A DNA stretch of 64,000 nucleotides. Origin: Aliikangiella coralliicola. GTDB lineage: Bacteria > Pseudomonadota > Gammaproteobacteria > Enterobacterales > Kangiellaceae. Where the stretch lies: NCBI RefSeq assembly GCF_007004725.1, contig NZ_ML660161.1, positions 687,683 to 751,682 on the forward strand, given 5' to 3'. The notes beneath the pieces are model-generated. The model saw only the letters and a list, made by a program, of their open reading frames with translations, did not search any database and was not told where the DNA came from. Numbering within the stretch: the stretch's first letter is position 1; each line of letters begins with the position of its first letter. A program made the translations under genes and the position numbers. Shown piece by piece: positions 3,671 to 45,477 of the stretch.

Positions 3671-3962
3671 TGTTAAACGTAACCTGATCAACTTTGCATA
3701 AAGTTGGACTTTTAAAAATATTCAGGGCGTGTTAATCCAAATAATTTCAACGAGCCTTAATTACCTATTATCTCCTATTCCAATTTGAAATATTACTGTA
3801 AAAAAATCGACATATTGTCGAAACAAATCTCAACTATCCTGCTCTTCGTTCACAAATAAATCATCGAACTTCCACAATTAAAATTATTACAAAGCTCAAT
3901 TGCGGAGTCCTTGTTCGGTTGTTCGATTTCCTAACTTTAATCATTCACATTGGAGTGAACCC

Positions 3963-5540
3963 ATGAAATTTACTAGAACCGTTATGTCTGGTCTTGTGAC
4001 ATTTGCTGTTGCATCCGGTTCATACGCGAGTGTTTTGCCTGACTATCAACAGCAGAGTAATTGGTATGTTGATTCGCAAAATATTATTAACCAAAAACAG
4101 CAGCAACAACCATCCAACCGTGCTAAGAATGTCATCTTGTTTGTCGGGGACGGAATGGGGATTTCAACTTTAACTGCCTCACGAATATTAGAAGGCCAAT
4201 TAGCCGGAAATTCAGGTGAAGAAAATTTATTAAGTTTTGAAAAATTCCCCTACACAGCACTGGTAAAAACATACAATGTTGATGCCCAAACGCCTGATTC
4301 TGCAGGAACTATGACAGCGATGATGTCTGGTATTAAAACCGATGTTGGTGTTATCGGTGTCGATGAAGATGTGGTGCGTCGTGACTGTTCCACATCTGCC
4401 GGAAACGAAGTTGTGACTGCGCTTGAGCTGGCCGAAATTAAAGGGCTGTCCACAGGCATCATATCAACTGCTCGCCTTACTCATGCGACGCCGGCTGCTA
4501 CTTACGCCAAGAGCGTTGAGCGTGGTTGGGAAGACAATGACGACATGCAAGATGTGACAGGAGGTTGTAAAGATATTGCCGATCAGTTTGTTAATTTTGA
4601 AGCCAATCTGGAAGCGCGTTTTGTTGGTATCGATGTCGACGGAATAGAAGTTGCTATGGGTGGCGGACGCCGTAATTTCTTACCTAAAGATCCCGCTTTT
4701 AACTCAGCCGATGCGGTCAGTAGTACCGAAGGTGACAGAACGGATGAGAGAGACCTGACTGCTGAGTGGCAAGAAAAATATGAAAATGGCGTTTATATCA
4801 TTGATCAAACGGGCTTTGATGCAATCGACCCGGAAACCACAGAAAGAGTTTTCGGCTTGTTTAATGAGTCTCACATGCAATACGAAGCGGATCGTGCCAA
4901 CGACGTTGCTGGTGAGCCTTCTCTTAGCGAAATGACTGAAAAAGCGGTTAAGCTTCTCGATAACAATGAAAAAGGTTTTTTCTTGATGGTTGAGAGCGGT
5001 CGTATTGACCATGGACACCATGCTGGTAGTGCGTCAACTGCGCTAACCGATACGATTGAATTTGCCAAAGCGGTTCAGACTGCAGTTGATAACACCAACC
5101 CAGAAGAAACACTCATTATCGTCACTGCGGATCACAGCCACGTAATGACGATCGGTGGTTATCCAAAACGCGGCAACCCTATTTTGGGTAAAGTAGTTGC
5201 GGTTGGGAAAACAGAGCCGTCATTAGCTGATGATGGACTGCCCTACACGACTTTGGGTTACACCAATGGCCGTGGTTTTCGAGACCTTGGTGCAGAGACC
5301 AATGGTGATGCTAGCTACAGTGAAGATCCTGTTGCAGGTCGAGTTGATTTGACCGGTGTTGATACTCAGCAACCTGGATTTCACCAGGAAACAACAGTTC
5401 CAAAAGGATCTGAAACTCATGCCGGTGAAGATATTACCATTCACGCGATTGGTCCCGGGGCGCACCGTGTTCAAGGTGTCGTTGAGCAAAGTGTTGTTTT
5501 CCACGTAATTAACCGAGCTCTCGGGCTAATTGCAGAGTAA
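3963..5540 (+). CDS. phoA: Alkaline phosphatase, exported (PhoA family), copy 1
   Basis: 525 aa, hydrolyses phosphate monoesters in the periplasm or outside the cell. ATG 3963 is preferred because GGAG lies 9 bases upstream and a typical Sec signal peptide (to about residue 23, GSYA/SV) starts there. Active-site elements of the PhoA family are visible in order: NVILFVGDGMG (metal Asp), PDSAGTMTA (nucleophile Ser113), GRIDHGHHAG (metal ligands), TADHSH (Asp-His) and ETHAGEDI (metal His near the C-terminus). The second copy starts 14 bases after the stop, so the two are probably co-transcribed. Much of the catalytic core is identical to copy 2, which indicates tandem duplication. No convincing Pho box was found upstream (3671-3962). 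Confidence 0.93.
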   Translation: MKFTRTVMSGLVTFAVASGSYASVLPDYQQQSNWYVDSQNIINQKQQQQPSNRAKNVILFVGDGMGISTLTASRILEGQLAGNSGEENLLSFEKFPYTALVKTYNVDAQTPDSAGTMTAMMSGIKTDVGVIGVDEDVVRRDCSTSAGNEVVTALELAEIKGLSTGIISTARLTHATPAATYAKSVERGWEDNDDMQDVTGGCKDIADQFVNFEANLEARFVGIDVDGIEVAMGGGRRNFLPKDPAFNSADAVSSTEGDRTDERDLTAEWQEKYENGVYIIDQTGFDAIDPETTERVFGLFNESHMQYEADRANDVAGEPSLSEMTEKAVKLLDNNEKGFFLMVESGRIDHGHHAGSASTALTDTIEFAKAVQTAVDNTNPEETLIIVTADHSHVMTIGGYPKRGNPILGKVVAVGKTEPSLADDGLPYTTLGYTNGRGFRDLGAETNGDASYSEDPVAGRVDLTGVDTQQPGFHQETTVPKGSETHAGEDITIHAIGPGAHRVQGVVEQSVVFHVINRALGLIAE

Positions 5541-5554
5541 AGAGGAATTTAAAA

Positions 5555-7372
5555 ATGAATAAGTTAATGACTTCAGTAGTTGCTGTATCTGCTGCGCTAA
5601 GCCTGGGTGGTTGTGTTGATGATGGTGACGATGGCACTAATGGTGTAAACGGTTTGAATAGTTTGGTGTCACAAACTGTACTAGCGATCGGCGATGCTGA
5701 TTGCCGGAACGGAGGCCTTAAAATTGATTCTGGCCTTGATGATAACAACAATAATCAACTGGATGCGACCGAAATTGATGACACGAATCTGGTTTGTAAT
5801 CCGCCGATTACCCAATTGTCTCAACAGGAAGTATTAAATAATACCAACAATTCCTGGTATATCGATTCTGCGCAAAAAGTTGAGTTGGCTGAAGAAAGTT
5901 TACAGGAAGTGATTAAACAGCGTGGTGGGGCGAAAAACATTATTTTATTTGTCGGCGACGGAATGGGTGCGTCAACGGTTACTGCTGCGAGAATTCTGGA
6001 TGGTCAGAATAAAGGCATGCAGGGCGAAGAAAATAATTTGAGTTTTGACGCTTTTCCATTTTCAGGTTTAGCTAAAACTTATAACGTCGATGCACAAACG
6101 CCTGACTCTGCAGGTACTATGACGGCGATGATGTCTGGCATTAAAACTGATGTTGGTGTGGTTGGTTTGAATGAAGCAGTGGTTAGAGGCGATTGTGGCA
6201 GTGCTTCAGGAATTGAACTGGCGACTGCTTTAGAATTGGCTGAAATTGCAGGCAAGTCTACCGGAATAATTTCAACAGCGCGGATCACGCACGCGACTCC
6301 CGCTGCAACTTACGCGAAATCTGCGCACCGAAACTGGGAAGATGTTTCCGACATGAAAGACGTGACCGGTGGTTGTAAAGATATTGCCGACCAATTGGTT
6401 AATTTTGAAGACAATCTCGAAGCGCGCTACGCCGGTTTGGATGTCGACGGAATTGAAGTGGTGATGGGAGGAGGGCGTCGTCATTTCCTTCCTAATGATC
6501 CCGCAGCTAATAGCCCGGATGCAGTCAGTGCCATTGAAGGAGATCGCACTGACAATCGTAACTTGATTACCGAATGGGAAGCAAAATACGCAAACGGTGT
6601 ATACGTTTACGACCAGAACGGTTTTGACGCCATCGACCCAGAATCTACAGAACGTGTTTTCGGTTTGTTCAACGAATCTCACATGCAGTATGAAGCAGAC
6701 AGAGCGAATGATGTGGCAGGTGAACCTTCACTGACTGAAATGACCGAAAAAGCGATTCAGGTACTTGATAATAATCAAGAAGGTTTCTTCCTGATGGTGG
6801 AGTCGGGGCGTATCGACCATGGCCATCATGCAGGTAGTGCATACAATGCATTAACTGACACCATTGAGTTCTCAGAAGCGGTTCAAAAAGCACTAGAGAT
6901 GACCAATCCTGAAGAAACACTAATTATTGTAACTGCTGACCACAGTCACGTATTTACCATCGCAGGTTATCCTAAACGTGGCAATCCAATTCTCGGGAAA
7001 GTCGTTGCTGTTGGAAAGTCTGCGCCGGACTACTCGCTAGCTTCTGATGGTATGCCTTATACCACGGTTGGTTATACCAACGGTCCAGGGTTTCGAGATT
7101 TAGGTTTGGAAACTGATGCAGACGTATCTTATGGGACTTCAGTGACGGGCCGAGTTGACCTGACTAATGTGGATACCACGGCACCTGGTTTTCACCAGGA
7201 AGCATTGGTGCCATTTAAATGGGGTGAAACTCATGCGGGGGAGGACGTTGGTATTTATGCTTCTGGTCCCGGAGCGCACCTGGTTTCCGGCACCAATGAG
7301 CAAAGTCTGATCTTTCATGTGATGGACTTTGCCGGTGACCTGGTTGCTAAGGCGAATGTGGTTCTAAAATAA
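5555..7372 (+). CDS. phoA: Alkaline phosphatase, lipoprotein form (PhoA family), copy 2
   Basis: 605 aa. The N-terminus has a lipobox (SLGGC, Cys20), an acidic collagen-like stretch GDDGTNGVNGLNS and a small cysteine-containing module (ADCRNGGLKIDSGLDDN...DDTNLVCN, about 48-91) of a kind often found after lipoprotein signals in marine bacteria (DUF7151-like, by memory). The alkaline phosphatase domain then starts near residue 125: IILFVGDGMGAS, PDSAGTMTAMMSG, GRIDHGHHAG, TADHSH, ETHAGEDV. All catalytic and metal motifs are intact. It is probably anchored in the outer membrane, whereas copy 1 is soluble. A GAGG site lies 8 bases before ATG 5555. Confidence 0.92.
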   Translation: MNKLMTSVVAVSAALSLGGCVDDGDDGTNGVNGLNSLVSQTVLAIGDADCRNGGLKIDSGLDDNNNNQLDATEIDDTNLVCNPPITQLSQQEVLNNTNNSWYIDSAQKVELAEESLQEVIKQRGGAKNIILFVGDGMGASTVTAARILDGQNKGMQGEENNLSFDAFPFSGLAKTYNVDAQTPDSAGTMTAMMSGIKTDVGVVGLNEAVVRGDCGSASGIELATALELAEIAGKSTGIISTARITHATPAATYAKSAHRNWEDVSDMKDVTGGCKDIADQLVNFEDNLEARYAGLDVDGIEVVMGGGRRHFLPNDPAANSPDAVSAIEGDRTDNRNLITEWEAKYANGVYVYDQNGFDAIDPESTERVFGLFNESHMQYEADRANDVAGEPSLTEMTEKAIQVLDNNQEGFFLMVESGRIDHGHHAGSAYNALTDTIEFSEAVQKALEMTNPEETLIIVTADHSHVFTIAGYPKRGNPILGKVVAVGKSAPDYSLASDGMPYTTVGYTNGPGFRDLGLETDADVSYGTSVTGRVDLTNVDTTAPGFHQEALVPFKWGETHAGEDVGIYASGPGAHLVSGTNEQSLIFHVMDFAGDLVAKANVVLK

Positions 7373-8264: not shown

Positions 8265-9596
8265 TCAATCTGTTACCGGTTCGCTTGCGATAGTATTGCG
8301 GCCGGTTTGCTTGGCTTTGTACAGTGCTTTGTCAGCGGCAACGAGTAGTTGCTCGCTTGTCATATCTTGTTCTGGTAATACGTTACTGACTCCAATACTG
8401 ACAGTCACATATTGACTTAAGCTAGAGTGAATGTGTTCTATTGCTAACTGCTCAATTTCACACCTTAAGTCTTCTGCGACTTTCTCCGCACCTGGCTGAT
8501 TGGTTTCTGGTAATACGACAACAAATTCTTCCCCGCCATAGCGCGCCACAATGTCTGTTGGGCGTGAAACCGTTTTATTGAGAACTCGAGCAACACGTTT
8601 CAGACATTCGTCGCCAGCTTTATGCCCATAGTGATCGTTGTATTTCTTGAAATAATCAATGTCGACAAAAAGAATCGAAATCTCCGTTTTACACCTCGTT
8701 GCTCGTTGCCATTCCTTTTTTAGATACTCATCCAGCGAGCGCCGATTAGCTATATTGGTGAGCTTATCGATATGGCTAAGCCGCTTTAGTTCTTTCTCAT
8801 GTTGTTTGTGTAAAGTTAGATCGTGAAAATGGCACAAGTACAATGGATAGTTGAGACCGAGCTGATTGATTGATAAATCGACCGGAACATTGATGCCGTT
8901 TCGTGTAACAATTTTAACTTCTCTTGCGCCATTGTCGACAATCTTATTATCTTGTTCTTCGAAAATTGTATCGTTTACAAAACAGGTTTTGTATTCTTCA
9001 ACAAATTCTGTGTCAAGAAATCGCGAAAATGACTGACCAATTATTTCTTCTTTTTCGTAGCCTAAAAAGCTTGTCGCTGCTGGATTGACGGATGAAATTC
9101 TACCAGGTGGCGATACTGTTAACATTGGGTTTGATGCACTATTTATGATTGTTCTGTAGCGTTGTTCCTGCATGTTTAGTTGGTTAATCAACAATTCCTT
9201 TTTATTCAATAAATCCCTGATTTTTAGTTGATTTTCTATACGCGCCCAAACTTCAGGTTCGTTGATTGGTTTAGTGATGTAATCTTTCGCACCAGCGGCA
9301 AATCCTTTGGCTATTTCTTCGGGGTTAGTTTTAGCCGTTACGAAAATGATGGGAATTTCGCTGGTTAAGGGATCTTTACTTAATTTTTTACAGGTTTCAT
9401 AGCCATCCATATCTGGCATCATGACATCGAGTAAAATCAGGTGAGGGTCAAACTCCCTGACTATTTTTAACGCGATCTTACCCGATGGAACGCCCGATAC
9501 CGAATAACCTTTTTGAGTTAAAGTGTGATAAAGCAGGTTAACATTTTCGGCTTTGTCATCGACTACTAATATTCTTTTATGTTTATTACTTGTCAT
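8265..9596 (-). CDS. Response regulator diguanylate cyclase (REC-PAS-GGDEF)
   Basis: 443 aa. Receiver domain about 6-122 with phospho-acceptor Asp57 (LILLDVMMPDMDG) and the conserved switch Lys (YITKP); PAS about 140-265; GGDEF about 275-440. The active site is GGEEF, and an RxxD product-inhibition site (RPTD) lies five residues before it, so the enzyme should make c-di-GMP and be feedback inhibited. It lies downstream of a binding-protein/hybrid-kinase/binding-protein set on the same strand (157 bases from the nearest) and is the likely output partner, although the kinase also carries its own receiver. It converges with the plus-strand gene ending at 8248. Confidence 0.92.
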   Translation of the reverse strand: MTSNKHKRILVVDDKAENVNLLYHTLTQKGYSVSGVPSGKIALKIVREFDPHLILLDVMMPDMDGYETCKKLSKDPLTSEIPIIFVTAKTNPEEIAKGFAAGAKDYITKPINEPEVWARIENQLKIRDLLNKKELLINQLNMQEQRYRTIINSASNPMLTVSPPGRISSVNPAATSFLGYEKEEIIGQSFSRFLDTEFVEEYKTCFVNDTIFEEQDNKIVDNGAREVKIVTRNGINVPVDLSINQLGLNYPLYLCHFHDLTLHKQHEKELKRLSHIDKLTNIANRRSLDEYLKKEWQRATRCKTEISILFVDIDYFKKYNDHYGHKAGDECLKRVARVLNKTVSRPTDIVARYGGEEFVVVLPETNQPGAEKVAEDLRCEIEQLAIEHIHSSLSQYVTVSIGVSNVLPEQDMTSEQLLVAADKALYKAKQTGRNTIASEPVTD

Positions 9597-9753
9597 CGCT
9601 TTTTAAAATAGAAATGTTAAATCATCTGGCTTATTTTTCTTTGCCAACTATCAGTCCATGCTACTTCAAAATGCTGACTATAGCGCTTTAATAACCTAAT
9701 TCTAGCTTGTTATCGTGAGTATTTCCCGTCAAGTTTTATGATCGGTAATATGC

Positions 9754-10917
9754 CTACTCTGCTAGATATTCAACCGAGATAGTCTTATCGAGATTAACTT
9801 GCCGATTGCTTATTTTGACTATGACCATATCACGCAGCGGTGTTCCTTGTTCAAAGTGTTTTATGGTTCCCGTTATTCCTTGAAAATTTCTTACTTTTTG
9901 CAAATACTCGACCAAAGATTTACTCGTTGTTTCCGGTGAGCTACACAAAGTTTGCCATAGCAGTGCAATCGTGTCATGGGTAATAGGAGAAATACTATGG
10001 GGATCCGCTGGATCGAAATTAGCAGCTCTGGAACGATTTTCGTGCGTATTTATTTCTTTGTATTTCGAAGTATTTGAATACCAGTGGTCCAGTGCGATAG
10101 TGTTTTCCATAAAATCGAAGTTTTTTAGTTGGTGAACATTCCAGGCGTCAGTACCGACCAGCGTCGATTTTACCCCGGAGTTGATCAGACGAGGGACTAT
10201 TTTTTTTATATCTTCAGTAAAATTGGGAAGTAGAATAAAATCGGGCTGGTTCTTCTTGATCGCTTCAATTAAATGAGCGTCGATATCATCAGGTTGTTTG
10301 TATCCAAATTGCTGATTGATTTGCCCGCCCATTTCAGAAAAATAATGAGTAAAGTTTTCAACGAAATCGCGACTATAGTCACTTGTTACCCGATAGATGA
10401 CTGACGCACTTTGATAGTTTAGTTGTTGATAAATCAGTTGGCTGAGAAGTTGCGCCTGTGAGCGATTATCAACGACAAGCTGGAATACATATTGTTTATC
10501 TTTAGTTAATTCTGGATGAGAAGAACCGATTGAAATCATTGGAATCTTTGCCCGTTCTGCTATCACTGCTAATGGCAGAGCTGTATCACTAGTATTAGGT
10601 CCTAGTATCACGCTGACATGTTCATTGTTGATTAGGTCGTTGAAGGCCTGGTAAGCGCCTTCTTGCGTTGATAATGTATCTTTGTAGATAACTTTAAGCT
10701 TCTTTTTATGTTGGCACTGCATTTCATAACTTTGCTTATTGATAAAGTTCTCAATGGTTGGTTTAATTTTTTTTTGCCAGGAATATTGATTACCGTGTAA
10801 TACGCCAACTTTAACTTCTTCTACCTGTGCTTCGAACTGACAGGCTGAGATAGCGAGTACTAGTAACAGATAGAAAATCAAATATCCTTTTTTGCTAAAA
10901 TTTCCTGGTATGCTCAC
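9754..10917 (-). CDS. Periplasmic binding lipoprotein, Leu/Ile/Val (PBP type 1) family, orphan
   Basis: 387 aa. Lipoprotein signal with lipobox ISAC (Cys26), then a type-1 periplasmic binding fold: VGVLHGNQYSW, a VSVILGPNTSDTALPLA hinge segment, PMISIGSSHPEL, and a late VEYLQKVRNFQGITGTIKHFEQG segment characteristic of LivJ/AmiC-like proteins. Family members bind amino acids, amides or urea. No ABC permease or ATPase gene is nearby. The gene starts 3 bases after the hybrid kinase gene ends, indicating translational coupling, so it more likely presents a ligand to that kinase than feeds a transporter (inference). Confidence 0.85.
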   Translation of the reverse strand: MSIPGNFSKKGYLIFYLLLVLAISACQFEAQVEEVKVGVLHGNQYSWQKKIKPTIENFINKQSYEMQCQHKKKLKVIYKDTLSTQEGAYQAFNDLINNEHVSVILGPNTSDTALPLAVIAERAKIPMISIGSSHPELTKDKQYVFQLVVDNRSQAQLLSQLIYQQLNYQSASVIYRVTSDYSRDFVENFTHYFSEMGGQINQQFGYKQPDDIDAHLIEAIKKNQPDFILLPNFTEDIKKIVPRLINSGVKSTLVGTDAWNVHQLKNFDFMENTIALDHWYSNTSKYKEINTHENRSRAANFDPADPHSISPITHDTIALLWQTLCSSPETTSKSLVEYLQKVRNFQGITGTIKHFEQGTPLRDMVIVKISNRQVNLDKTISVEYLAE

Positions 10918-10920
10918 CGA

Positions 10921-13515
10921 CTAATCCTGTATGCGTTTGAGTTTTTGAAGTATTCGCGAGATTTCTAGCATATTCAAATCGCTTAAAAATAATTTCAATT
11001 TATCCGCTAATAATTCACCTGCTTCTCCGTGAGAAGAAATCTCTTCTATACATTCAGTCAACTGGGTTATATGGTAAAGGCGACAAGCTTCCAGTGCTGA
11101 ATTAATGACATTAAGTGGCAGCGTGATGGACTCTAGAGAAATCGAATTGGAGGCCGATTGAGTTTCAGCTGCGTTAAGTTGGTGCGGAGTCGGCGGCGAG
11201 CTGGTAATTTCATTAATCACTTCGATAATATCCGCAAAATCAACAGGTTTAGCGACAAAACCGTCAAAGCCAATATCGATAATATTTTGTTTCTCGTGAG
11301 ATAGCGTAGAGGCGGATACCGCGTAACAAAGAGGTGTTTGAATGGTTGGATCGTTTTTAAGGAGATTGAAAGCTGTGATTCCATCCATTACCGGCATGCG
11401 TATGTCTAAAAAAACGATATCAATGGTTTCGTCTTTATCATTATACTCCTTCAGTGTGTCTAGAAACTCCTGTCCGTTAGTCGCTTCAATCACTTGAATG
11501 CCAAGTTCGTCCAGGTAAGTTCGAAGAATTAGCCGATTGTCTTCCAGGTCATCAACAACTAAAGCCAAATGAACTTTCGGTGTATCAATGCTAAGTATTG
11601 AAGGGCTGGAAGTTTTTTCGGGTTCGGCGTGTTTTAAGTTAATGCTAAAATAGAACGAGCTACCTTGATTGACTTCAGATTTGACCTCAATTGAGGAGCC
11701 AAACATTTTTGCTAATCGCCTGGCAATAGATAACCCTAGGCCAGTTCCTGTACTTTGGTTTGCTTCGAATTCCTGTTCGAAAGGTTGAAATATTTTTTCA
11801 AGAGACTGATGACTTATGCCTGTTCCAGTATCTTTAATTTCAAAATAGTATTGTGACTCGAGATGATTGAGGTCTGCTTCTGTGGGGGCAGGTTCAATTT
11901 CTTCGATTTCTGCGGGAACTTGCTGTGTGAGGGTAAAGGTGATTTCTCCTGATTGAGTAAACTTGATCGCGTTATTGATCAAGTTGATCAAAATTTGCTT
12001 AAGCTTTAACTCGTCGCTACTAACGAAGTCCTGCTTGATATCTTTCACTACAGCCCATTTGAGATTTTTTTCATCACAGCGGACTTCAAACATGCTCGTC
12101 AATTCGTTGATCATGCCATTCAGGCTAAATGAAGTTTCATCTAAAATAGATTTTCCTGCCTCGATACGGCTTATGTCTAAGATGGTATTGATCAGCTCGA
12201 GTAAATGGTTGCCTGCGTATTCGATTCGCGTAAGGAAATTTTTACTTGTTTCATCAAGGTTGTCTTTCCGTAAAAGAATTTGGGAATAGCCAAGAATCGA
12301 ATTCATCGGCGTACGGATTTCATGGGACATGTTCGCGATAAAATTACTTTTCGCAATTGTGGCAGTTTCAGCTCTTTCCTTTGCGTTGCGCAAGTCATCG
12401 TATGACTCTTTTAATCTATCGGCCATCAGGTTAAATGTTGAGGCTAAAATACCCGCTTCGTCGCTCGAATTAATTGACACTCGAGCATCCAGATCGCCAT
12501 CGGCTATTTTGGTAACTGTTTTGGTAAGGCTCTTTAATGGGCGAGTGAGTTGGTTTGCTATGATATAAATTAAAAAAGCTAATGCAACAACGACCATGAC
12601 GCCGAAAACAAAAATGTTAATTGCCAGTTTTTGGGCTGGCTCAAATGCTATGCTTTGCGGTAATTCGACTAATAGCGCCGCGTCTAAAGAATCAACCCAG
12701 AGAAAACTGCCAATGACAGGGACGCCTCGATAGTTATCATATAAACGAGTGCCGCTTTTTCCAGCAACGGCTAAATTGATGCCAAGTGATTCGGCCCCGC
12801 GCAAAAACTCATCGCGTCCAAATCGTTCGCCGGAAACAAAAGCGCGATACCTGTCCACAAGGTAAGATTCACCGAGTTTTCCTAAACCCGTCTCTTCCAA
12901 TATTATCTGGTCAATTCTGTTCAAGTTAACATGCATGGCGATAACGCCAATCAAAGCACCCGTTTCGCTTTTAAGCGGTGCTGATATTGTTATTGTTGGG
13001 CCATAGGTAATAGGAGACGGGTAAATTTTTTGAATGAAAGCTGCTTTTAAACCTTCTTCAAAAAAGTTATCTAGCGTTCGATAGTCGCCTTCGTGAGACT
13101 GATCGGTTGAAACAACAATTTTCCCGTTAAGATCGAGCAGAAAAACTTCTTGCCAATCATGTTGTAGCTGCTTTAAGTCTAGCAAGTGCTCGCGTAGGGA
13201 TTTTAATTTTTCTTGATAACTACCATTATCACCTTTCGTATTGAGTATTTCGCTCGAAATGTTAATGAGTGTTTTTATTTTGGATAACCAAATCAAATCG
13301 GTTTTTAATCCGTCTAACCATAATTTTAGCGAGTCTTGCTTGAGGGCAATTGAAACTTCAAGTCGGGAGAACACTGTTTGTTGAAGTGTACTTTTAGCGG
13401 TAACGAAAACAAAGCTTCCAATAATGATGATGGTGAATAAGAAGAGTAAAGCGTTAGAGAGAATAACCTTCGCTTTAAGGCTATTTTTACCAATTTGCTT
13501 AAGAAATTCACTCAT
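10921..13515 (-). CDS. Hybrid sensor histidine kinase (Cache-HAMP-HisKA-HATPase-REC)
   Basis: 864 aa inner-membrane kinase. TM1 about 17-40; periplasmic double-Cache-like region about 45-295 ([27 protein letters not shown]); TM2 about 298-320; HAMP about 320-375; HisKA with His398 ([12 protein letters not shown]); HATPase with N box [19 protein letters not shown] and GTGLGLSIA; receiver about 655-785 with [12 protein letters not shown] and a FVAKPVDF switch Lys; then a 90-residue helical tail without an obvious Hpt histidine motif. It is flanked by two binding lipoprotein genes (10 and 3 bases away), an arrangement in which ligand-loaded binding proteins dock onto the sensor. The likely target is the REC-PAS-GGDEF protein encoded downstream. 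Confidence 0.92.
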
Positions 13516-13525
13516 AATATCAAAT

Positions 13526-14683
13526 TTAATCCAGCACCCAGTTAGGTGAGCGATAGATTTTGTTGGCGTTATTTTTCACATTGATAATGATTGGTTTTTT
13601 ATAATGCTTATTATTTTTATTCAGGTTGATTTTTCCGGTTACACCACTAAAGTCTCCAATCGATTTTAGTGCTGTAGTAATTTCTGTATTTGCGGTAAAA
13701 CTGTGTTCAATTGCCTTACCTAATATTCCCAACGCATCATAGGTTAAGGCGGACATACTTGTTGGGTCTTGTGAATGCTTGCTCCGATATTCATCGAGGA
13801 ACTGTTTGGCTTTCTTATTGTATTTTGCATACTCAGGGTGCCAGTGATGAGCATAATAGGCATCATTGAATTGTTCGTCAGTAGTAACTTTAAGAGGGCT
13901 CCAATTATCACTTCCTAAAATAAACCCTTTAAAACCCGATTGTTTTAATCCTTCGAGTTGTGCTTTACTTTCTTTTGTTGCATTTGGTAACAGAACTGCC
14001 TGCGTATTTTCTAAACGTATTTGTGATATTTGTTTGCTGAAATCCTTGGTGCCAGAAATATAGAATTCGAAAGCTGAAATTTTACCACCAAGTGATACAT
14101 AGCGCTCTTTAAATGCCTCGGCAACTACTCGGCTGGAAGGATTTCCAATGTTATATAGCACGGCGGTGTTCGGGAGACTAAGCTCTTGCTGGGCAAATTT
14201 AGCTAGCAGGTTTCCTTGTTCAGAATTACTAAACGCGATACGGAAGACGAACTTTTTATTTTTATCAACAACGGTTGATGTTGCGCCAGGAGAAATCATT
14301 AATTGTCCTGCAGATTCTGCCACCGCTGATGCCGAATAGGCTGTGCTACTCATATTAGGACCAACTATTGCGGTAACTTTATGCTCAAAAATGAGGCGCC
14401 TTGCAGCCTCTACTGCGGAATCTTTTTGGTTTAAAGTATCTTCTATAACTAGTTCTAACTGTCTTTTTTGTTTTCCTGTATTAAGACCACCCTGTGCATT
14501 GATTTTGTCGATGTAGAGTTTAGCTGCGTTAATTGATGGCGGACCACCAGGTGTAGATTTATCGATCAATAAACCGATAATGATCGGCTTGTCATTTTCT
14601 GGTGGAGTGAAGCAAGCTATTAACAGAGAGCTAAGGAAAACGAGGAATATACTTCTGAAAGTGGTTTTTATCGTAATAGGCAT
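13526..14683 (-). CDS. Periplasmic binding lipoprotein, Leu/Ile/Val (PBP type 1) family, orphan
   Basis: 385 aa when started at ATG 14683, where a lipoprotein signal ([14 protein letters not shown], Cys24) begins; an upstream start at 14788 would add 35 residues in front of it. Family motifs: [48 protein letters not shown] and [20 protein letters not shown], then [15 protein letters not shown]...[14 protein letters not shown]. It is the first gene of the apparent operon binding protein - hybrid kinase - binding protein - diguanylate cyclase, and no transporter genes accompany it. Its divergence from the protein encoded at 9754-10917 suggests different ligands. Transport via an ABC system encoded elsewhere is not excluded. 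Confidence 0.87.
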
Positions 14684-34211: not shown

Positions 34212-35279
34212 TTAACCTAATATATTAGCGCCCATTCTGGTTGCTTGAACTGCCCCATCGGCCACCAGGGTTTCATAATTATAAATTCGATTGCGACCAT
34301 TTTCTTTTGCGTGGTAAAGGGCTTTGTCTGCCGAGTGAAGTATGGCGGGAGGGTAGTCAGTATCAGTAATTCTCGCATAACCAATACTCACGGTGACATG
34401 CCCGACTAGTGGAAAATTATGAGTGGCAATGGCGTCTCTAAATCTATCTAGCGTGTCATAGGCATGCTGCCTTTGATTGGGTTCTAATATAACGACAAAC
34501 TCTTCTCCACCAAAACGAAAGAGATAATCAGTTTGGCGAAAACATAACTTCATTTTGTGAGCGAGTAACAGCAAAACACCGTCTCCGAAAACATGGCCAT
34601 ATTTGTCGTTAATTTGCTTAAAATTATCAACATCAATGATCGCAAGCCAGGTTTCAGAATAGGGTTTTATGGTACGCTTCTCTTGATTTTTAGAGCCTTC
34701 AATAAGGTAAATCTGTTTGTTTCTCTGAATTTGTAACAGCCGGTCCAGTTTTTTGTCGAATGTTCGCCGGTTGTATAGACCTGTTAACTTGTCTCGCTCA
34801 CTTTCGTTGAGAATATAAAGGTAGTTTTCGTATACCTTGATCATACCTTCAAGCACTTTGAGCGTTGGGTTCAAATCAGTTTCTGACTGGATATTTAATG
34901 CTGCAACAACTTTACTATCACAGGCAATTGGGAGAATAATTCGAGTTAATTGCTCTTTCTGAGAGAAGCGAACCGGTTGTCCGCTGTCCATACAGTCTTG
35001 TATGTCCTGATCATTACATATTTGCTTTGGTCCTTCAGTCCACTCAAGATCATCTGAGTGATCATCGTTTTGCTTCATATCCAGACGGACGGTTTCTTCC
35101 AGAATAATTTTTATTCCGTCATCAACAAGTTTGTAAATTGCAATTGATTCCGCCGAGAGCATTTCGGCGAGAGTTGCCACCAGACCGTATTCTAGGGAAT
35201 CAACATCACGTTGACTGGTAATTTTGATAACAGAGTCCAGTATCGTATGATCCACTATGACATTCCTTTGTTGCTCCAA
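34212..35279 (-). CDS. Diguanylate cyclase with N-terminal GAF-like domain
   Basis: 355 aa, soluble. N-terminal about 1-165 looks like a GAF sensor (LDSVIKITSQRDVDSLEYGL, AESIAIYKLVDDGI, RIILPIACDSKVVAALNIQSE). GGDEF domain about 175-345 begins DKLTGLYNRRTFD and has GGEEF with RxxD (RQTD) five residues before. It should synthesise c-di-GMP under feedback control. A 35-residue insertion after the first GGDEF helix (QRNKQIYLIEGSKNQEKRT) is longer than usual. It lies 106 bases downstream of a binding-protein gene on the same strand, the second such pairing in the window. Confidence 0.9.
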   Translation of the reverse strand: MEQQRNVIVDHTILDSVIKITSQRDVDSLEYGLVATLAEMLSAESIAIYKLVDDGIKIILEETVRLDMKQNDDHSDDLEWTEGPKQICNDQDIQDCMDSGQPVRFSQKEQLTRIILPIACDSKVVAALNIQSETDLNPTLKVLEGMIKVYENYLYILNESERDKLTGLYNRRTFDKKLDRLLQIQRNKQIYLIEGSKNQEKRTIKPYSETWLAIIDVDNFKQINDKYGHVFGDGVLLLLAHKMKLCFRQTDYLFRFGGEEFVVILEPNQRQHAYDTLDRFRDAIATHNFPLVGHVTVSIGYARITDTDYPPAILHSADKALYHAKENGRNRIYNYETLVADGAVQATRMGANILG

Positions 35280-35385
35280 GGATGTTAAAAAGGATGAATT
35301 ATTACTATAGCGCGGCTAACTGACTTTATGTTATTTATACTGATAAATAATTATAGTGTTAGTTTTTATGGCGTTATCGGTAATT

Positions 35386-36807
35386 TTATTCAATTGTTAG
35401 CTTATTTAAGTTTAATACTGTAAGTGTTTTAGGTTTTTCAGTCAATGTGCGTAATTTTTTACGATCGCAACCAGCGCCGTAAACTTTATGAAATTCTCTT
35501 ACAACTAATTGAACCATCTTATTATCACCCTTTCCATCAAAGTGAATTGGACCGCTCTGTCCGAGAAAAGAAGTTGTGTTGTGTTGGGCAAGTTGTTTGG
35601 AAAAATTAGCAAAACTCAAGGTCGATATTGTAGGTCGATTGTTTGCAGTTATTTGGCGCAATGAGGTACTGAATTCAGTTGACTTTCTTTCAGCGAGACT
35701 TAGTGCGCTGGCGATGAGATAAGTTAAATCGTTAACAAATACCGCTGTATAGGAGGTATGGCTGACATCTAGCGTTTTGGTGATGCCTTTTATGATCCTT
35801 AAATCTTTATTTGACTGAGTAGGAACAACAGAAAATACGCAAACGGAGCGACTAAATTTGGGCGTTTCAGGAATTGTTAGATTGGCGTGCTCCGGCAATA
35901 ACAAGATAGGGAGTTTTCCTTGCCAGTGTTTGGCTATTTGTTCGAAGAAACTATCAAATTGTCCACTGGGAACAACCAACATCAAAACTTCACTACCGAG
36001 CTTTTGCGCTTGTTTGATTTCGTATGCAAGACTATAAGAGTCAAAGGTAACAGATTTACTTAAAGACTCTGAAAAAACGACTTCACCTCCACTTAATTTT
36101 ATTGATTGCGATAATCCTTGGTAAAGCTCGCGTCCGAAAACATCTCGTTGGTAAAACACGGCCACTTTATTTAATTGGTTTTGACTGAGAAATTCTACCA
36201 TTTTATCGGTGATTTGACGGTTGGTCGCAGTGACGCGAAAAACCAGATCATTGTCCTTAAGTTCTGAAAGTTCATTGGCATTAGCTGCTGGGGCAAAAAG
36301 CGGAATGCCGGCCGGAATGGTTACTGCTTTGGCGACCGCTAATACATGCTGTGAGGCGACCGGCCCAATGAGCGCTTTAATGTCATGGTTTTTTATCATT
36401 CGGCTGGCGACCTTTATACCTGTCTCTTCGTCAAGGTTGTCGTCACCGCGAATGATTGCGAGTTTCTTGCCATTAATTCCACCAAGGCTATTAATTTCCG
36501 CTGCGGCAAACTCCGCCGCCGCAATTATTTCTACCGAGGCTTTTTTTTCCGCGGTAAAAGGAACTAAAAGCCCTATATTGATTGTAGAAGAAGTCGGTGC
36601 GGTGGCTCGTGACCAGAATAAGCCTTGTGGTCTTGACTGTTGAACCTTGACGTTCATGAGTTCTCTGAGTGAAAGGTCAAGCAAACTACTGGTTAGTACA
36701 AGTGGACTCCAGGCAACCATGCCTGTCAGAGATAAAATAATTATCAAGTTTTTACCGGCCGTCCAAGTTGTACCCAAAGTCGTCATACCTAATGATAAGT
36801 GCGTCAA
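35386..36807 (-). CDS. Periplasmic binding protein, Leu/Ile/Val (PBP type 1) family, orphan
   Basis: 473 aa. N-terminal hydrophobic segment about 20-45 acts as signal or anchor; no lipobox seen. Binding fold about 75-440: INIGLLVPFTAEKKASVEII, INSLGGINGKKLAIIRGDDN, DIKALIGPVASQHVLAVAK, IPLFAPAANANELSELKDND, VAVFYQRDVFGRELYQGL. The family binds amino acids or related ligands for ABC uptake, but no permease or ATPase gene is close. The neighbour downstream is a diguanylate cyclase, so a sensory role is suggested by context. Confidence 0.82.
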   Translation of the reverse strand: MTHLSLGMTTLGTTWTAGKNLIIILSLTGMVAWSPLVLTSSLLDLSLRELMNVKVQQSRPQGLFWSRATAPTSSTINIGLLVPFTAEKKASVEIIAAAEFAAAEINSLGGINGKKLAIIRGDDNLDEETGIKVASRMIKNHDIKALIGPVASQHVLAVAKAVTIPAGIPLFAPAANANELSELKDNDLVFRVTATNRQITDKMVEFLSQNQLNKVAVFYQRDVFGRELYQGLSQSIKLSGGEVVFSESLSKSVTFDSYSLAYEIKQAQKLGSEVLMLVVPSGQFDSFFEQIAKHWQGKLPILLLPEHANLTIPETPKFSRSVCVFSVVPTQSNKDLRIIKGITKTLDVSHTSYTAVFVNDLTYLIASALSLAERKSTEFSTSLRQITANNRPTISTLSFANFSKQLAQHNTTSFLGQSGPIHFDGKGDNKMVQLVVREFHKVYGAGCDRKKLRTLTEKPKTLTVLNLNKLTIE

Positions 36808-37149: not shown

Positions 37150-37620
37150 TCAGTTAAGTAGAGTCATTGATTGTTTTATATTGGCGGTTAGGAATAAAGT
37201 CGCGAGATCGAGGATTGGTACAGCGGAATTTTCATAGGAGAAACAGGATAGGGCGATGCGGCTCCAGAATTTTTCCTTATCTGGCAATTCGCAATACTGA
37301 TTGTCATTAACCGTTATCAACTCTGGTTTGTAAGGAAGGCTGAGGCCACCAAAATGCAATTGTTGTTGATATTGAAATGAAACAACAACCAGTTCCTCGC
37401 AAGGTAATGCTTCCTCGTTGATCAAAAGATTCAAATTCATGACCGGGACGACCATTTGATTCCATCGAAAAAGATGACGACAATAATCTGGTGTAAAAGG
37501 TAATGGCGTTAATTCACTATGGTATAGAAGCTCCTGAATCGCATGAACGCCGATAGCAACATATTGCTCAGGGCTGTATTGTAGCAACCAGGCCTTAGTT
37601 TTTTTCTCTTCGTTACTCAT
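37150..37620 (-). CDS. CheW-like coupling protein, last gene of chemosensory operon
   Basis: 156 aa, a single weak CheW domain (YVAIGVHAIQELLYHSELTPLPFTPDYCRHLFRWNQMVVPVMNLNLLI; AVPILDLATLF). Such domains join the kinase to receptor arrays. It follows another CheW-like gene by 42 bases. In the P. aeruginosa Pil-Chp system, ChpC is a CheW-like protein encoded after ChpA; this gene and its neighbour hold comparable places. Sequence is divergent, so the partner is inferred. Confidence 0.72.
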   Translation of the reverse strand: MSNEEKKTKAWLLQYSPEQYVAIGVHAIQELLYHSELTPLPFTPDYCRHLFRWNQMVVPVMNLNLLINEEALPCEELVVVSFQYQQQLHFGGLSLPYKPELITVNDNQYCELPDKEKFWSRIALSCFSYENSAVPILDLATLFLTANIKQSMTLLN

Positions 37621-37662
37621 TCTAGCCGCCAGATAACTGATTCAAATAGTTTTACTTTTATC

Positions 37663-38130
37663 TTATAAATGTTTTAACAACTTTTCCGGGTCGATGAAAA
37701 AATAGTCGGTTTTTTCATAGCGTAAAATGCCATTAATCGGAAATTGTTCGGTCTGCATGGCTAATGGAATTGATTGGCTGTCGCATGGTTGATTACTTTC
37801 CGTGAAAGATATTTCATGGCAGTAAAGCCCGATTTTTTTCCTCATTAGTTGAAGGATGGCAATTCTTTTCCGAGTTGGATCAACTTGCTGTTCATTAGTA
37901 AGTTGACTGTTGAGACATAGTAATTGAATGGGGTTTTCTTTTGCGTCTTTATGGGAGGAATGTATAAAACTCTCATCAAGTTGAATTGACTCAATATTAT
38001 TTGCAGCGATTGCAACGCGACACTGATCCCAGCGCAATAAACAGTATGTTTTTTGGCTAGACAGAGTAGATGGCTGAGCGGGTTTTAAAAAAGAGCCAAC
38101 TGGTTGAGATGCTTGGGCAAATGAGCTCAT
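37663..38130 (-). CDS. CheW-like coupling protein
   Basis: 155 aa. CheW-type pattern: YCLLRWDQCRVAIAANNIESIQLDE, then IPLAMQTEQFPINGILRYEKTDYFFIDPEKLL. Residues 1-28 are a disordered Ser/Gln/Pro-rich lead. Its first base overlaps the last base of the ChpA-like gene, indicating translational coupling. Probable ChpC/PilI-type adaptor. Confidence 0.72.
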   Translation of the reverse strand: MSSFAQASQPVGSFLKPAQPSTLSSQKTYCLLRWDQCRVAIAANNIESIQLDESFIHSSHKDAKENPIQLLCLNSQLTNEQQVDPTRKRIAILQLMRKKIGLYCHEISFTESNQPCDSQSIPLAMQTEQFPINGILRYEKTDYFFIDPEKLLKHL

Positions 38131-41100
38131 CAGGCATGTACCTCCGTCATCATTTCAATATTTGAAAGCACATCAGTTTCTGAAAATGGTTTGGTTAAGT
38201 AAGCATTAACGCCAACTTTTCTCGCGTGTTCGCGGTGCTTATCGGTGTAGCGAGAAGTAATCATGATAACGGGCGTATTTTCTAATTCGTCATTCGCCCT
38301 AACGTGTGCAGTGAGTTCAAGGCCATTGAGTCTTGGTAGCTCTAAGTCTGAGAGAATGACATCTGGATGCCAGCTTTTAAGGATTTGAATGGCTTCAATT
38401 CCGTCAATAGCGGTTTTCACTTCATAGCCTGTGTCAGAAACTAACTGTTCTAACATTCGTCGTGTACTTAAAGAGTCTTCAACGATGAGAACTTTATTGG
38501 TTGATGCTACCGGGACGACTCTATCTTGTAACACATCAGCATTTTTATTCTGCAGATGAGTTGAAGATTGTAAAAGTTCATTGAGTTCTAGTATCGCAAC
38601 GATCTGGCCGTCACCGAGAGTTGCAGCGCCATGGACTCCTGGAATATGGGGAAGAAATTCGCCAAATTTTTTCAATACAATGTCTCGGCAATTTAAAACT
38701 TCGTCGACAAAAAGCGCTTTTGGCCCGCTGTCAGTGCGCACAATGACCCCCGCTCTTTTGGCAAATTCTTCTTCACTCAGAGATGTTTTTTCGCCACCAA
38801 TATAATTATTGAGATAGTAAGTCGTGTAATTCTCGTTACCGAAAAAGAAATTGAGTTTATCGCCAATAGTCTTAAAAGAGCCACTGTTAGGCGCGAAAGC
38901 CTGAATTAATGTATTGGTAGGAAGTGCATATAAAACGCCTGCCGACTTAACAATCAGTACATGTTGAGAAACCATAGTGATCGGTAATGTAAGCACAACT
39001 TCACACCCCTGCTCAGGTTTCGAGTTGATTTCCAGGTAACCGCCGGACTCTGTGATTTTTTGCGAAACGACATCCATCCCGATGCCGCGGCCTGAAGTGG
39101 CGGTAACACTATCACTGGTGGAAAAGCCCGGCTGCAATAAATATTGTATGAGCGTTTTTTCCGGTAAGTTTTGTTCCTTTGTTATTAAACCAGACGCTAT
39201 CAATTTTTGTTTGATTTTCTCATAATCAATACCACGTCCATCATCTTTGCAACTGACAACTATGGAGTGGCCTTTTTGTTTAAACGATAGTGCTATTTCA
39301 CCGGTGGGTAATTTATCCGAGCTTTGGCGTTCTTCGGGGAGTTCTATGCCATGGTCAACCGAATTTCTCAACACATGCATTAGCGGATCCATCAGCATGT
39401 TGAGTACATCTAGATCAATATTAATTGACTGTCCAGTTATCTCAAAATCGACCTGTTTGTTGAGTAACCTGGATACCTGGCGAACGCAACGTTCCAGTCG
39501 GGGAACAATCGTTTTAACCGGTATCATTCGTGTTCTCAAAACGTCACTTTCCATGCTCTTGTTAAGATTGACCTGTTTTTGAAAAATTGAATCGAGACCG
39601 CCCAGCCTGTTTTTGATTGAGTTTTCCACTTGTTTGATATCCGATAGAGATTCGACTATTTGATTCAGGTAAGTATGTAGTTCGTTCATCCGGTTGACTT
39701 CTAGCGGGTCAAATTCTTCTTGTTTCACCGAGCTTCTTGTTAGCTTTCTTTCTGAATCACTAACCGCCCGAATATCAATATAGTTTTCAAATTCGAATAC
39801 CGTTTTTTGCATTTTTTCGGATAGCTGATCGAGTGTTCCTATCATGCTTTTTACATGTTGGTACTCGTCGTCAAGATGGCCTTGTAGAACCGTCGTTTCT
39901 CCGACATTTCTCAGAATTTTTTCCAGGTCATTTTTAGCAACCCTGACCATTGCCGCATTTTCGTGATGTTTTTTTTCGGCGGGAGATTTACTGATTAAAA
40001 TGGGATTATCAACAGCCGGGGAGATAGCTTCCTCCGATATTTTTTCCTGTTCCAGATTTGACTCACTATTCGCAGTTGTTTGACTAGCTGTTGAGTTGCT
40101 TTGCTCCGGCGCTTCGAGCGTTGTTGGCATCGACTCTTGCGTAGTCCTTTCGGCTGTTGAGAGCAGGCCAAACTTCATGTCATAATCTAGCTGGATTTGA
40201 GCTGCTGTTTGGGACACAGATAGCCCTTTGTTGTAGCCGCTAATGACATCGATTAAGGTTTGTAACACTAACTGTAGATCTTTCGGTTCTTCAGTATTGC
40301 CGAGCAGGTATTCGCAGGTGTCAGCCAGGCTGTCTGCTATTCGAAAAATAAAGTTGACGATTTCTTTTGAGAAGGGACCATTCTCCTCTGCCAGATAACC
40401 TAATATATCTTCAAAACGATGTGAAATATTAACCAGCCCGGTTATACCAATAGTACCCGCGGCACCTTTGAGAGTGTGCACACATCTTTGCGCGGAAACC
40501 AGGTGTTCCATTTTGTCGGGCTCTGCACTATAAAGCTGGAGGTGCTCGGTTAGTTCTTCAATATGCAACGGTGCTTCTTGTAAGAACATTTCAACCAAAA
40601 TTGTCTGTGCGTCTGCAGGGATAGTTAAATCGATGTCATTTTCGAGTGCTTCTTCAAGTGTGTCTTTCGATTGAGTATCATTTTCGTTAAATAATTCTTC
40701 GCAAAGTAAAACAGAAGCATCTTCTATTTGTGATTCGGGCAGATCACAAAAACCATCATTAAGCAGCTCTCGCATAAAAGTTAATAAATTCGTTTCGTTA
40801 ATATTGGTTGTGCAAATGATGTAATCGGTTAAGTGCTTTTGTACTGTAGCTATATACTTTTTTGTTGTTGACTGACTTAAATCAAACTCCGAGAAGCTGG
40901 TTTTTAAATGATTGAAAAACCAGGCACTACCCTTTAGACTATTTTGTTCAGTCACTTCGTTGAGACTGTCAAAAAGAATTATGCACTGCTTTTTTTGTTG
41001 GGTAAGCTGCTCAACATTTGAGTTGTTTTCATCGGTTTTGTTCAGAACAATTTGCGCAAGTAATTGGTGAAGTTCTATGGTCAACTCACCTATTGTTTGC

Positions 41101-42191: not shown

Positions 42192-42285
42192 AATGACTTA
42201 CTCAAATTTCATAAAGAACATTTGGAAATGTAGACGTAGATTAACTTCAATTCACTTCGCCTTAACAACATTATCCAAAAGCTGA

Positions 42286-44829: not shown

Positions 44830-44910
44830 TTTTTCATTCCTTCCTCAAATCGCTAAAATTTATTTAATATTTATTAAAATAAAATTACTAGAAGCAACTT
44901 GCCAAAGTCG

Positions 44911-45477
44911 CTAATGTTTTGATAGTTGCCGAAAAAAATTACCGCCATCTAATTGAAACCAGATTTCACCGTTATTTTCCTGGTAAACATTTGATGTAGA
45001 TTGTTTTAGTTTTTTGTTGATATCGAGGCTATCTGATTTTAATTGAGAGGTTGAGAATTGCTTTCGAACGGGAAGTGTATCGCTATAAATTGCAACATAA
45101 GATTCTTCAATCTTAAAAATAAGAAGGTATAGATTATTTTTCAGGCTGACCTCTGTATCTGTTAGGTATTTATGAATGCTATAAACAGGAATAATATTAC
45201 CTTTGTGGCTAGTGACCCCTACAAGAGAGGGAGCGCCATTGGGCATAGGGAATACTTTACTATTTAAGTTAATCTGACAATTAATCGTGGCGCTGACCAT
45301 CAGATTGAGATTACCTACTTTAAAACCATTGAGTTTCTGTTGATTGGTTCGATTTGCATCACTGCCAGACTGATCCGACAGTGGTTTAAATTTAGCTGGT
45401 TTTATGGAAAGTGCCTGACTGGGAAGAATCAATCCGGAATCTTGCTTCTCACTAGAAGATATTTCTATGTCTGTCAT
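44911..45477 (-). CDS. CheW-domain protein, PilI-like
   Basis: 188 aa. The first 55 residues are Ser/Lys-rich and probably unstructured; a CheW domain follows: GFKVGNLNLMVSATINCQINLNSKVFPMPNGAPSLVGVTSHKGNIIPVYSIHKYL. Position between the receiver genes and the receptor gene matches pilI. It would connect the receptor to the ChpA-like kinase. Gaps of 38 and 81 bases to neighbours support one operon. Confidence 0.78.
   Translation of the reverse strand: MTDIEISSSEKQDSGLILPSQALSIKPAKFKPLSDQSGSDANRTNQQKLNGFKVGNLNLMVSATINCQINLNSKVFPMPNGAPSLVGVTSHKGNIIPVYSIHKYLTDTEVSLKNNLYLLIFKIEESYVAIYSDTLPVRKQFSTSQLKSDSLDINKKLKQSTSNVYQENNGEIWFQLDGGNFFRQLSKH

What the first reader, a model, noticed from the sequence alone, without database searches (positions are those of the whole stretch)
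8265..14683. Binding protein - hybrid kinase - binding protein - diguanylate cyclase module without transporter
Two LivJ-type lipoproteins sit tightly on either side of a Cache-HAMP hybrid kinase gene (10 and 3 bases), followed by a REC-PAS-GGDEF regulator. No ABC permease or ATPase is present. The most economical reading is that two different small-molecule ligands are reported by two binding proteins to one kinase, which controls c-di-GMP. Two orphan type-1 binding proteins with one kinase is an uncommon arrangement.
Basis: partly seen in the sequence, partly recalled or inferred. Interest (0 to 1): 0.7.

Follow-up and report, generated by a model that had tools for sequence, protein, structure and literature searches.

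The report
Binding-protein array feeding one kinase
A four-gene block places two related, predicted periplasmic binding lipoproteins around one sensor kinase and a predicted c-di-GMP-making enzyme, related species carry three or five such binding proteins in the same block, and no import-permease gene of the matching family was found in the genome, so one kinase likely reads several different small molecules without importing them.

Summary
Confirmed and extended. Order, strand and the 10- and 3-base gaps are right: Peripla_BP_6 lipoprotein, dCache-HAMP-HisKA-HATPase-REC kinase, second Peripla_BP_6 lipoprotein, REC-PAS-GGDEF. The second fails too: 3 of the 7 genus genomes (own included) keep the order, with 2, 3 or 5 binding proteins around one kinase. 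Binding proteins at corresponding places are orthologous, and recalled ligand-contact positions differ by place. Close kinase relatives (40 family genomes) and regulator orthologues (7 genus genomes) were found only where the array is, and the block sits at two chromosomal sites. The kinase's dCache subfamily has solute-binding proteins of several unrelated Pfam families next door in 9 of 34 sampled loci. Best reading: a transporter-free, multi-input version of SBP-kinase 'three-component' systems (LuxPQ, CuaDSR), with c-di-GMP output. Ligands, docking and phosphotransfer are untested, and neighbouring SBPs failed to bind two P. aeruginosa kinases (PMC11113362). Novelty: new variant of a known kind.

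The parts
13526..14683 (-). BP1: Peripla_BP_6 lipoprotein, 'up' slot immediately upstream of the kinase; lipobox Cys24 at 14612-14614
10921..13515 (-). Hybrid histidine kinase: predicted TM - dCache - TM - HAMP - HisKA - HATPase_c - REC - C-terminal helical segment
   Evidence: ORF; Pfam; model pLDDT 80.6, pTM 0.41; orthologues 49% and 42% identical in the alignment
12667..13278 (-). Periplasmic dCache_1 region of the kinase (residues 80-283), proposed docking site for the binding proteins
12322..12324 (-). Predicted phospho-acceptor His398 (NMSHEIRTP)
   Evidence: invariant in the three orthologues
11215..11562 (-). REC domain of the hybrid kinase (residues 652-767)
   Evidence: Pfam
9754..10917 (-). 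BP2: Peripla_BP_6 lipoprotein, 'dn' slot immediately downstream of the kinase; lipobox Cys26 at 10840-10842
   Evidence: ORF; Pfam 2.2e-30; homologous to BP1 (27%, E 1.7e-35); lipobox
8265..9596 (-). REC-PAS-GGDEF response regulator, predicted diguanylate cyclase with GGEEF and RxxD I-site
   Evidence: Pfam; motif
9426..9428 (-). Predicted phospho-acceptor Asp57 of the regulator
   Evidence: sequence

Best explanation
This is most likely a transporter-free, multi-input 'three-component' signalling system in which two related, predicted periplasmic lipoproteins would each bind a different amino-acid-like ligand and would dock on the dCache domain of one hybrid histidine kinase, which is predicted to phosphorylate a REC-PAS-GGDEF regulator and so change c-di-GMP. 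Shown: the gene block, its conservation with 2, 3 or 5 binding proteins around one kinase, no match to the LIV-type permease family in the genus genomes searched, orthology of the binding proteins by place, and place-specific differences at recalled ligand-contact positions. Inferred: that each binding protein binds a ligand, that they contact the dCache domain, that the kinase signals to the neighbouring regulator, and that the regulator is an active diguanylate cyclase. Mechanistically the kinase would be the common reader and the set of binding proteins the exchangeable front end, so that species change what they sense by gaining or losing binding-protein genes rather than by changing the kinase.
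For: (1) No BPD_transp_2 permease match in the genome (control rings in 12 of 14) or in 7 of 7 genus genomes. (2) Same gene order in 3 of 7 genus genomes with 2, 3 and 5 binding proteins, short gaps or overlaps. (3) Strong kinase-sensor matches (E<=2.4e-145; 40 family genomes) and regulator orthologues (E<=3.5e-124; 7 genus genomes) are in those same 3 genomes; extras are a weak sensor match in G570 (6.5e-15) and a truncated regulator copy in G200. (4) The 12 genus binding proteins and 5 database relatives form one group (100/99) apart from seven ABC-linked LivJ proteins; each slot is its own group (up 100/99, far-up 100/99, dn 100/100, dn2 100/99). (5) Recalled amino-acid anchor positions (Ser79, Thr/Ser102, Asp226, LivK numbering) kept in 12 of 12; Tyr150 lost in 4 of 4 'up' and kept in 8 of 8 others; position 202 varies. 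(6) The dCache subfamily has an SBP as immediate neighbour in 9 of 34 sampled loci outside the three module genomes, and on a Nostoc plasmid. (7) PDB 5ere carries a part matched by the BP1-family profile and a dCache-fold part in one chain. [quoted passage not shown]
Against: PMC11113362 (abstract and introduction read) tested three SBPs near two P. aeruginosa kinases and saw no binding. 25 of 34 sampled sensor relatives have no detected adjacent SBP. Several positions of the distal dCache lobe are invariant or nearly so across the subfamily, which would also fit direct small-molecule sensing. None of the 12 lipoproteins has Asp at +2, so by the recalled E. coli rule they would go to the outer membrane, away from the kinase. 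The kinase has no Pfam Hpt domain, so the phosphate route is unclear. G200 also carries a binding-protein pair with no kinase beside it. 4 of 7 genus genomes lack the block, one of them 82% complete.
Confidence: 0.6

Rival explanations
1. The dCache domain senses its ligand directly; the binding proteins are periplasmic scavengers or concentrators that only raise local ligand and do not touch the kinase.
For: Conserved positions in the distal dCache lobe across a subfamily whose neighbouring SBPs differ; 25 of 34 sampled relatives have no detected adjacent SBP.
Against: Lipoprotein paralogues with place-specific pockets, found beside the kinase in 3 of 3 genomes that have the kinase, are not needed for a passive sink.
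Confidence: 0.17
2. Only one of the two binding proteins signals through the kinase; the other is a decoy, an antagonist or serves another receptor in trans.
For: The kinase-less pair in G200 contig C130 shows that members of these slots can stand away from the kinase.
Against: Both up and dn slots are kept next to the kinase in 3 of 3 genomes with the block.
Confidence: 0.13
3. The neighbourhood is not a functional unit: the binding proteins serve an undetected transporter or have no role in signalling.
For: AgtS and AruS showed no interaction with neighbouring SBPs (PMC11113362 abstract).
Against: No BPD_transp_2 family permease match in 7 of 7 genus genomes; the block is conserved in order and found at two chromosomal sites as a unit.
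Confidence: 0.1

Closest known systems
LuxP-LuxQ (Vibrio autoinducer-2 receptor)
   Same: Periplasmic binding protein reporting to a hybrid kinase with a double-PDC (dCache-like) periplasmic domain; LuxQ does not bind AI-2 itself but recognises it via LuxP (PMC8534201, passages).
   Different: One binding protein, not an array; kinase scores 250.7 bits against the LuxQ cut-off of 1200 with only the kinase core matched; no Peripla_BP_4 hit for BP1/BP2 at E 0.001 (that LuxP is of that family is recalled); the GGDEF regulator is in the block.
CuaD-CuaS-CuaR of Ruminiclostridium cellulolyticum
   Same: Lipoprotein SBP with its gene next to its kinase; CuaD binds the CuaS extracellular domain, which showed no affinity for the sugars tested by ITC (PMC10384115, passages).
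   Different: Single sugar SBP, AraC-type regulator, and a separate ABC transporter for the same sugar; the authors think CuaS may also sense cellobiose weakly without CuaD. Here several paralogues, GGDEF output and no LIV-type permease found.
TorT-TorS and XylFII-LytS
   Same: SBP-kinase couples known from structures (TorS/TorT in PMC8534201 passages; XylFII-LytS in PMC9602780 and PMC10384115 passages).
   Different: One SBP per kinase as far as those passages tell; TorS sensor is all-helical; kinase here scores 310.3 bits against the TorS cut-off of 676.5.
LivJ/LivK branched-chain amino acid binding proteins (HAAT family)
   Different: No permease/ATPase partner beside them; 80.6 and 35.8 bits against the PRK15404 cut-off of 477; separate group from seven ABC-linked members.
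PDB 5ere, extracellular receptor of Desulfohalobium retbaense
   Different: Fused rather than separate genes; 12% identity over the dCache part.

Membership tests
SBP-dependent (three-component) sensor kinase systems | SBP gene next to a sensor kinase gene | tested here: met
   10- and 3-base gaps; conserved in G198 and G200
SBP-dependent (three-component) sensor kinase systems | Kinase with a periplasmic sensor domain of a kind known to read SBPs | tested here: met
   dCache_1; structural match to dCache-fold sensors; LuxQ is a double-PDC sensor that reads LuxP (passages)
SBP-dependent (three-component) sensor kinase systems | Physical SBP-sensor complex | not testable with these tools
   no complex prediction or binding assay available
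SBP-dependent (three-component) sensor kinase systems | Ligand-dependent change in kinase activity through the SBP | not testable with these tools
   needs experiment
LuxPQ | Kinase passes the LuxQ equivalog cut-off | tested here: not met
   NF041947 250.7 bits, cut-off 1200; match only to the kinase core, residues 376-761
TorTS | Kinase passes the TorS equivalog cut-off | tested here: not met
   TIGR02956 310.3 bits, cut-off 676.5
HAAT-type ABC uptake system (LivJHMGF) | Type-1 binding protein of the Peripla_BP_6 family | tested here: met
HAAT-type ABC uptake system (LivJHMGF) | BPD_transp_2 permease in the genome | tested here: not met
   0 of 7 genus genomes, own included; control rings in 12 of 14
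dCache_1 sensor domain | Pfam gathering score for PF02743 | tested here: met
   45.6 bits vs 45 for the window kinase; the G200 orthologue falls just short, 42.8 bits
REC-GGDEF diguanylate cyclase | GG(D/E)EF signature, I-site RxxD and phospho-acceptor Asp | tested here: met
   RPTDIVARYGGEEF at residue 345 and Asp57
REC-GGDEF diguanylate cyclase | Enzyme activity controlled by phosphorylation | not testable with these tools
   needs experiment

The most novel reading that the evidence does not exclude
A modular 'chemical nose': one dCache kinase is a general reader of binding proteins, and a row of paralogous, place-specific binding lipoproteins (2, 3 or 5 depending on the species) plugs different amino-acid-like signals into it, competing or adding at one docking surface to set c-di-GMP. 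The same dCache subfamily would be a general SBP-reader used across phyla with SBPs of unrelated families.
Probability: 0.42. Interest if true: 0.78.

Novelty: new variant of a known kind. Interest (0 to 1): 0.62.

Why it matters
Only about ten cases of SBPs binding and activating sensor kinases have been characterised (PMC9602780, passage), and the signals of the large majority of receptors are unknown (PMC11113362 introduction). A naturally varying series (2, 3, 5 binding proteins, one kinase, one output) is a ready comparative system for how one sensor domain integrates several binding proteins. If the dCache subfamily described here is a general SBP reader, it gives a sequence rule for finding SBP-stimulated kinases, cyclases and chemoreceptors, where gene vicinity alone has misled (PMC11113362). 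It would also explain why a genome with no LIV-type permease found keeps LIV-type binding proteins.

Tried and rejected
ABC transporter remnant: rejected, since PF02653 gives no match in 7 of 7 genus genomes and the module binding proteins form a group apart from seven ABC-linked ones.

LuxPQ or TorTS orthologue: rejected on equivalog cut-offs. LuxQ or other named sensors not being among the 50 rows is no evidence, because kinase cores fill that list.

The viral, metagenome, phage and E. coli DNA collections were not searched. The one genome-contig scan, seeded with BP1 relatives, kept the best 80 of 220 loci. I read ORFs for two of the 80 (L031 and L029); L031 is a LivJHMGF cluster by eye. 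A sensor profile run over my ORF calls of those 80 loci hit two at weak E-values (L093 8.7e-7 and L071 2e-6). Their gene contexts were not otherwise tabulated, so I claim nothing more from them.

BP2 protein search: 2 proteins at E<=0.001, one of them the window's own. BP1 search: 39, one the window's own. I could not fetch contigs for these database proteins.

Class survey with the 3-row sensor alignment: 14 of 369 genomes, own included; all 14 matches outside the own genome were fetched, and none shows a Peripla_BP_6 neighbour. Class survey with the 12 binding proteins: 67 of 369 genomes at E<=1e-20; 40 loci were fetched, and 25 of 40 carry a permease or ATPase hit, 23 a permease hit. My ORF calls drop overlapping ORFs, so these are lower bounds.

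Plasmid search with the sensor: 7 records, of which the Nostoc hybrid kinase and two Salinivibrio chemoreceptors cover at least 80%; a second round with the Nostoc sensor returned only the Nostoc record.

Sensor-neighbour count: 14 loci of the class survey, 20 of the 70 phylum matches outside the own genome (the best-scoring ones) and 1 family match, 35 in all; L281 was dropped because no sensor ORF was recovered. Some loci are cut at contig ends, so a neighbour may be missed. Not every neighbour was Pfam-scanned. I scanned those that looked like SBPs or were unclear, ran 10 SBPs against the ORFs of these loci, and read the rest by their first 90 residues.

Regulator search in the genus: in 4 genomes only 150 of 166-248 first-look candidates were scored, so its absence from G197 is less firm.

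Rows left out of the tree: P0006 (fragment), W_third, own_C9. Four rows have long branches and their place is unsure.

A possible phospho-acceptor His815 in the kinase's C-terminal helical segment was considered and not pursued; Pfam finds no Hpt there.
Full report

No transporter. The window lies in a 7.04 Mb, 99.88% complete genome. PF02653, the LivH/LivM permease family, gives 0 matches there, while the same search rings in 12 of 14 control genomes. It gives 0 of 7 in the genus, 6 of which are at least 90% complete. The genome has 7 Peripla_BP_6 matches: the two here, a third in this window (35386-36807), one on C2 beside a REC protein, one on C5 and one on C9 that I read as lying next to TonB-dependent receptors, and one on C1 that looks like LpoA (readings by eye). 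So all of them stand in a genome with no LIV-type permease found.

Gene order is conserved and the number of binding proteins varies. In one search, 4 of 7 genus genomes (own included) gave BP1 relatives. G198 has BP-BP-kinase-BP-REC-PAS-GGDEF and G200 has BP-BP-BP-kinase-BP-BP-REC-PAS-GGDEF, all genes on one strand with overlaps or short gaps (Pfam of the G200 kinase and of both regulators). The window has two binding proteins. The fourth genome, G199, has a divergent PBP beside a different hybrid kinase (L027). One search repeated the search with a 12-row profile of these proteins over 40 family genomes: module-grade matches (E<=1.6e-120, by construction for the 12 rows) occur only in G000, G198 and G200; the next best match is 8.1e-33. 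The kinase sensor (40 family genomes) is strong only in the same three; G570 has a weak relative at 6.5e-15. The regulator orthologue (7 genus genomes) is found in the same three, with one truncated extra copy in G200. Kinases are 43-50% and regulators 46-53% identical between species.

The block sits at two chromosomal sites. In G198 (L026) the module lies between an EAL-like gene and an acyltransferase-like gene followed by SirB2-, YigZ- and PepQ-like genes (names by eye). In the window's own genome that stretch (L298) has the same flanking genes and no module. G200 has the same acyltransferase side next to its module (L024). The block therefore behaves as a unit.

The places are orthologous. 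A maximum-likelihood tree of 31 binding proteins puts the 12 genus proteins and five database relatives in one group (100/99), apart from seven ABC-linked LivJ proteins. Inside it, 'up', 'far-up', 'dn' and 'dn2' places are each one group (100/99, 100/99, 100/100, 100/99). Pairwise identity is 31-43% within a place (14 pairs) and 24-32% between places (52 pairs). A kinase-less pair in G200 (contig C130) belongs to dn and dn2.

The predicted pockets differ by place. On a LivK reference and contact list recalled from memory, the positions taken to hold the amino-acid head group (Ser79, Thr/Ser102, acidic 226) are kept in 12 of 12 genus proteins. Position 150 is Ser or Ala in 4 of 4 'up' proteins and Tyr in 8 of 8 others. 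Position 202 is A, R, L, R (up), F, F, K, A (dn), F, F (far-up) and F, F (dn2). This fits amino-acid-like ligands that differ between BP1 and BP2. It does not name them.

The dCache subfamily often has an SBP next door. A database search with kinase residues 20-330 gave 158 relatives; the 120 listed have kinase, adenylate/guanylate cyclase and other outputs. P0042 and P0045 carry the same recorded contig lengths (13797, 22702) as the BP1 relatives P0006 and P0007, which suggests shared contigs but does not prove it. P0045 has an Hpt domain. In genome samples I took flanks of 35 sensor loci outside the three module genomes: all 14 from the class survey, the best 20 of 70 matches of the phylum survey (58 of 398 genomes) and 1 from the family. 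L281 was dropped, leaving 34. An SBP is the immediate neighbour in 9 of 34: Phosphonate-bd (L123), NMT1_2 (L124, L267, L268), Peripla_BP_5/6 (L278), SBP_bac_5 with a chemoreceptor (L132), SBP_bac_1/8 with a dCache-GGDEF-EAL protein in the same family (L296), and a dCache-only ORF between an NMT1_3 and an SBP_bac_8 protein (L128, L136, two genomes of one genus). Among the 14 with a kinase core it is 5 of 14. The loci are the best-scoring hits, not a random draw, and no background rate was measured here. A published figure for orientation is two cases among the 58 kinases of P. aeruginosa PAO1 (PMC11113362, introduction read). A relative on a Nostoc plasmid stands back-to-back with an SBP_bac_8 protein. 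PDB entry 5ere has a part matched by the BP1-family profile and a dCache-fold part in one chain.

How it would work. Ligand-loaded BP1 or BP2 would dock on the dCache dimer and change kinase output, as LuxP does on LuxQ (PMC8534201 passages) and CuaD on CuaS (PMC10384115 passages). The kinase would phosphorylate Asp57 of the neighbouring regulator, directly or through its own REC domain and an unlinked Hpt protein; the kinase itself has no Pfam Hpt. The regulator would make c-di-GMP. The application to this system is inference throughout.

Results against. In P. aeruginosa, AgtS and AruS did not bind neighbouring SBPs (abstract). 25 of 34 sampled sensor relatives have no detected adjacent SBP. 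Several distal dCache positions are conserved across the subfamily, which would suit direct sensing. No lipoprotein of the 12 has Asp at +2, which by the recalled E. coli rule points to the outer membrane. 4 of 7 genus genomes lack the block.

Known or new. SBP-kinase couples are known, about ten characterised (PMC9602780 passage). None of the titles or abstract openings listed by my literature searches (capped lists) describes one kinase with an array of several SBPs; the library is open-access only, so this is weak evidence. I file it as a new variant of a known kind.

Organism. The window's genus is unnamed in these tools.

Noticed in passing
window 34212-36807 and 37150-45477 (-): A third Peripla_BP_6 protein (473 aa, 35386-36807; Pfam) with a TonB-box-like N-terminal stretch (by eye) precedes a GGDEF-like gene and follows CheW/CheW/CheA/MCP-like genes (by eye); the MCP-like ORF at 42286-44829 matches the broad sensor profile at 1.1e-19: possibly a second binding-protein/dCache/GGDEF cluster.
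   Followed up: partly
L184, L185, L201, L189 (genomes G378, G234, G484, G234): Peripla_BP_6 fused to a mechanosensitive-channel (MscS) module plus a cyclic-nucleotide-binding domain (three ORFs of 1142, 1167 and 1184 aa), and in L189 a match just under the cut-off to a neurotransmitter-gated channel membrane region (27.1 vs 28.1 bits).
   Followed up: partly
L128:6698-10127 and L136:6821-10256: A dCache-only ORF (357 aa) sits between an NMT1_3 SBP and an SBP_bac_8 SBP: two SBPs of different families flanking one Cache protein.
   Followed up: partly
L296:3224-7505 (same family, G570): SBP_bac_1/8 protein 28 bases upstream of a dCache-HAMP-PAS-GGDEF-EAL protein.
   Followed up: partly
L025:7781-10031 and L295:377-1156 (G200): A kinase-less dn1-dn2 binding-protein pair and a separate truncated regulator copy (259 aa) in G200, possible remnants or trans parts of a second module.
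   Followed up: no
L193:1403-12400 (G422): A Peripla_BP_6-type protein lies among three kinase-like ORFs on one strand, another neighbourhood without a permease hit.
   Followed up: no
window 3900-7372 (+): Two tandem paralogous alkaline-phosphatase-like ORFs (546 and 605 aa; read by eye).
   Followed up: no
window 10921-11130 (-): C-terminal helical segment of the kinase after REC, conserved in three species with an invariant YH pair, no Pfam family.
   Followed up: no
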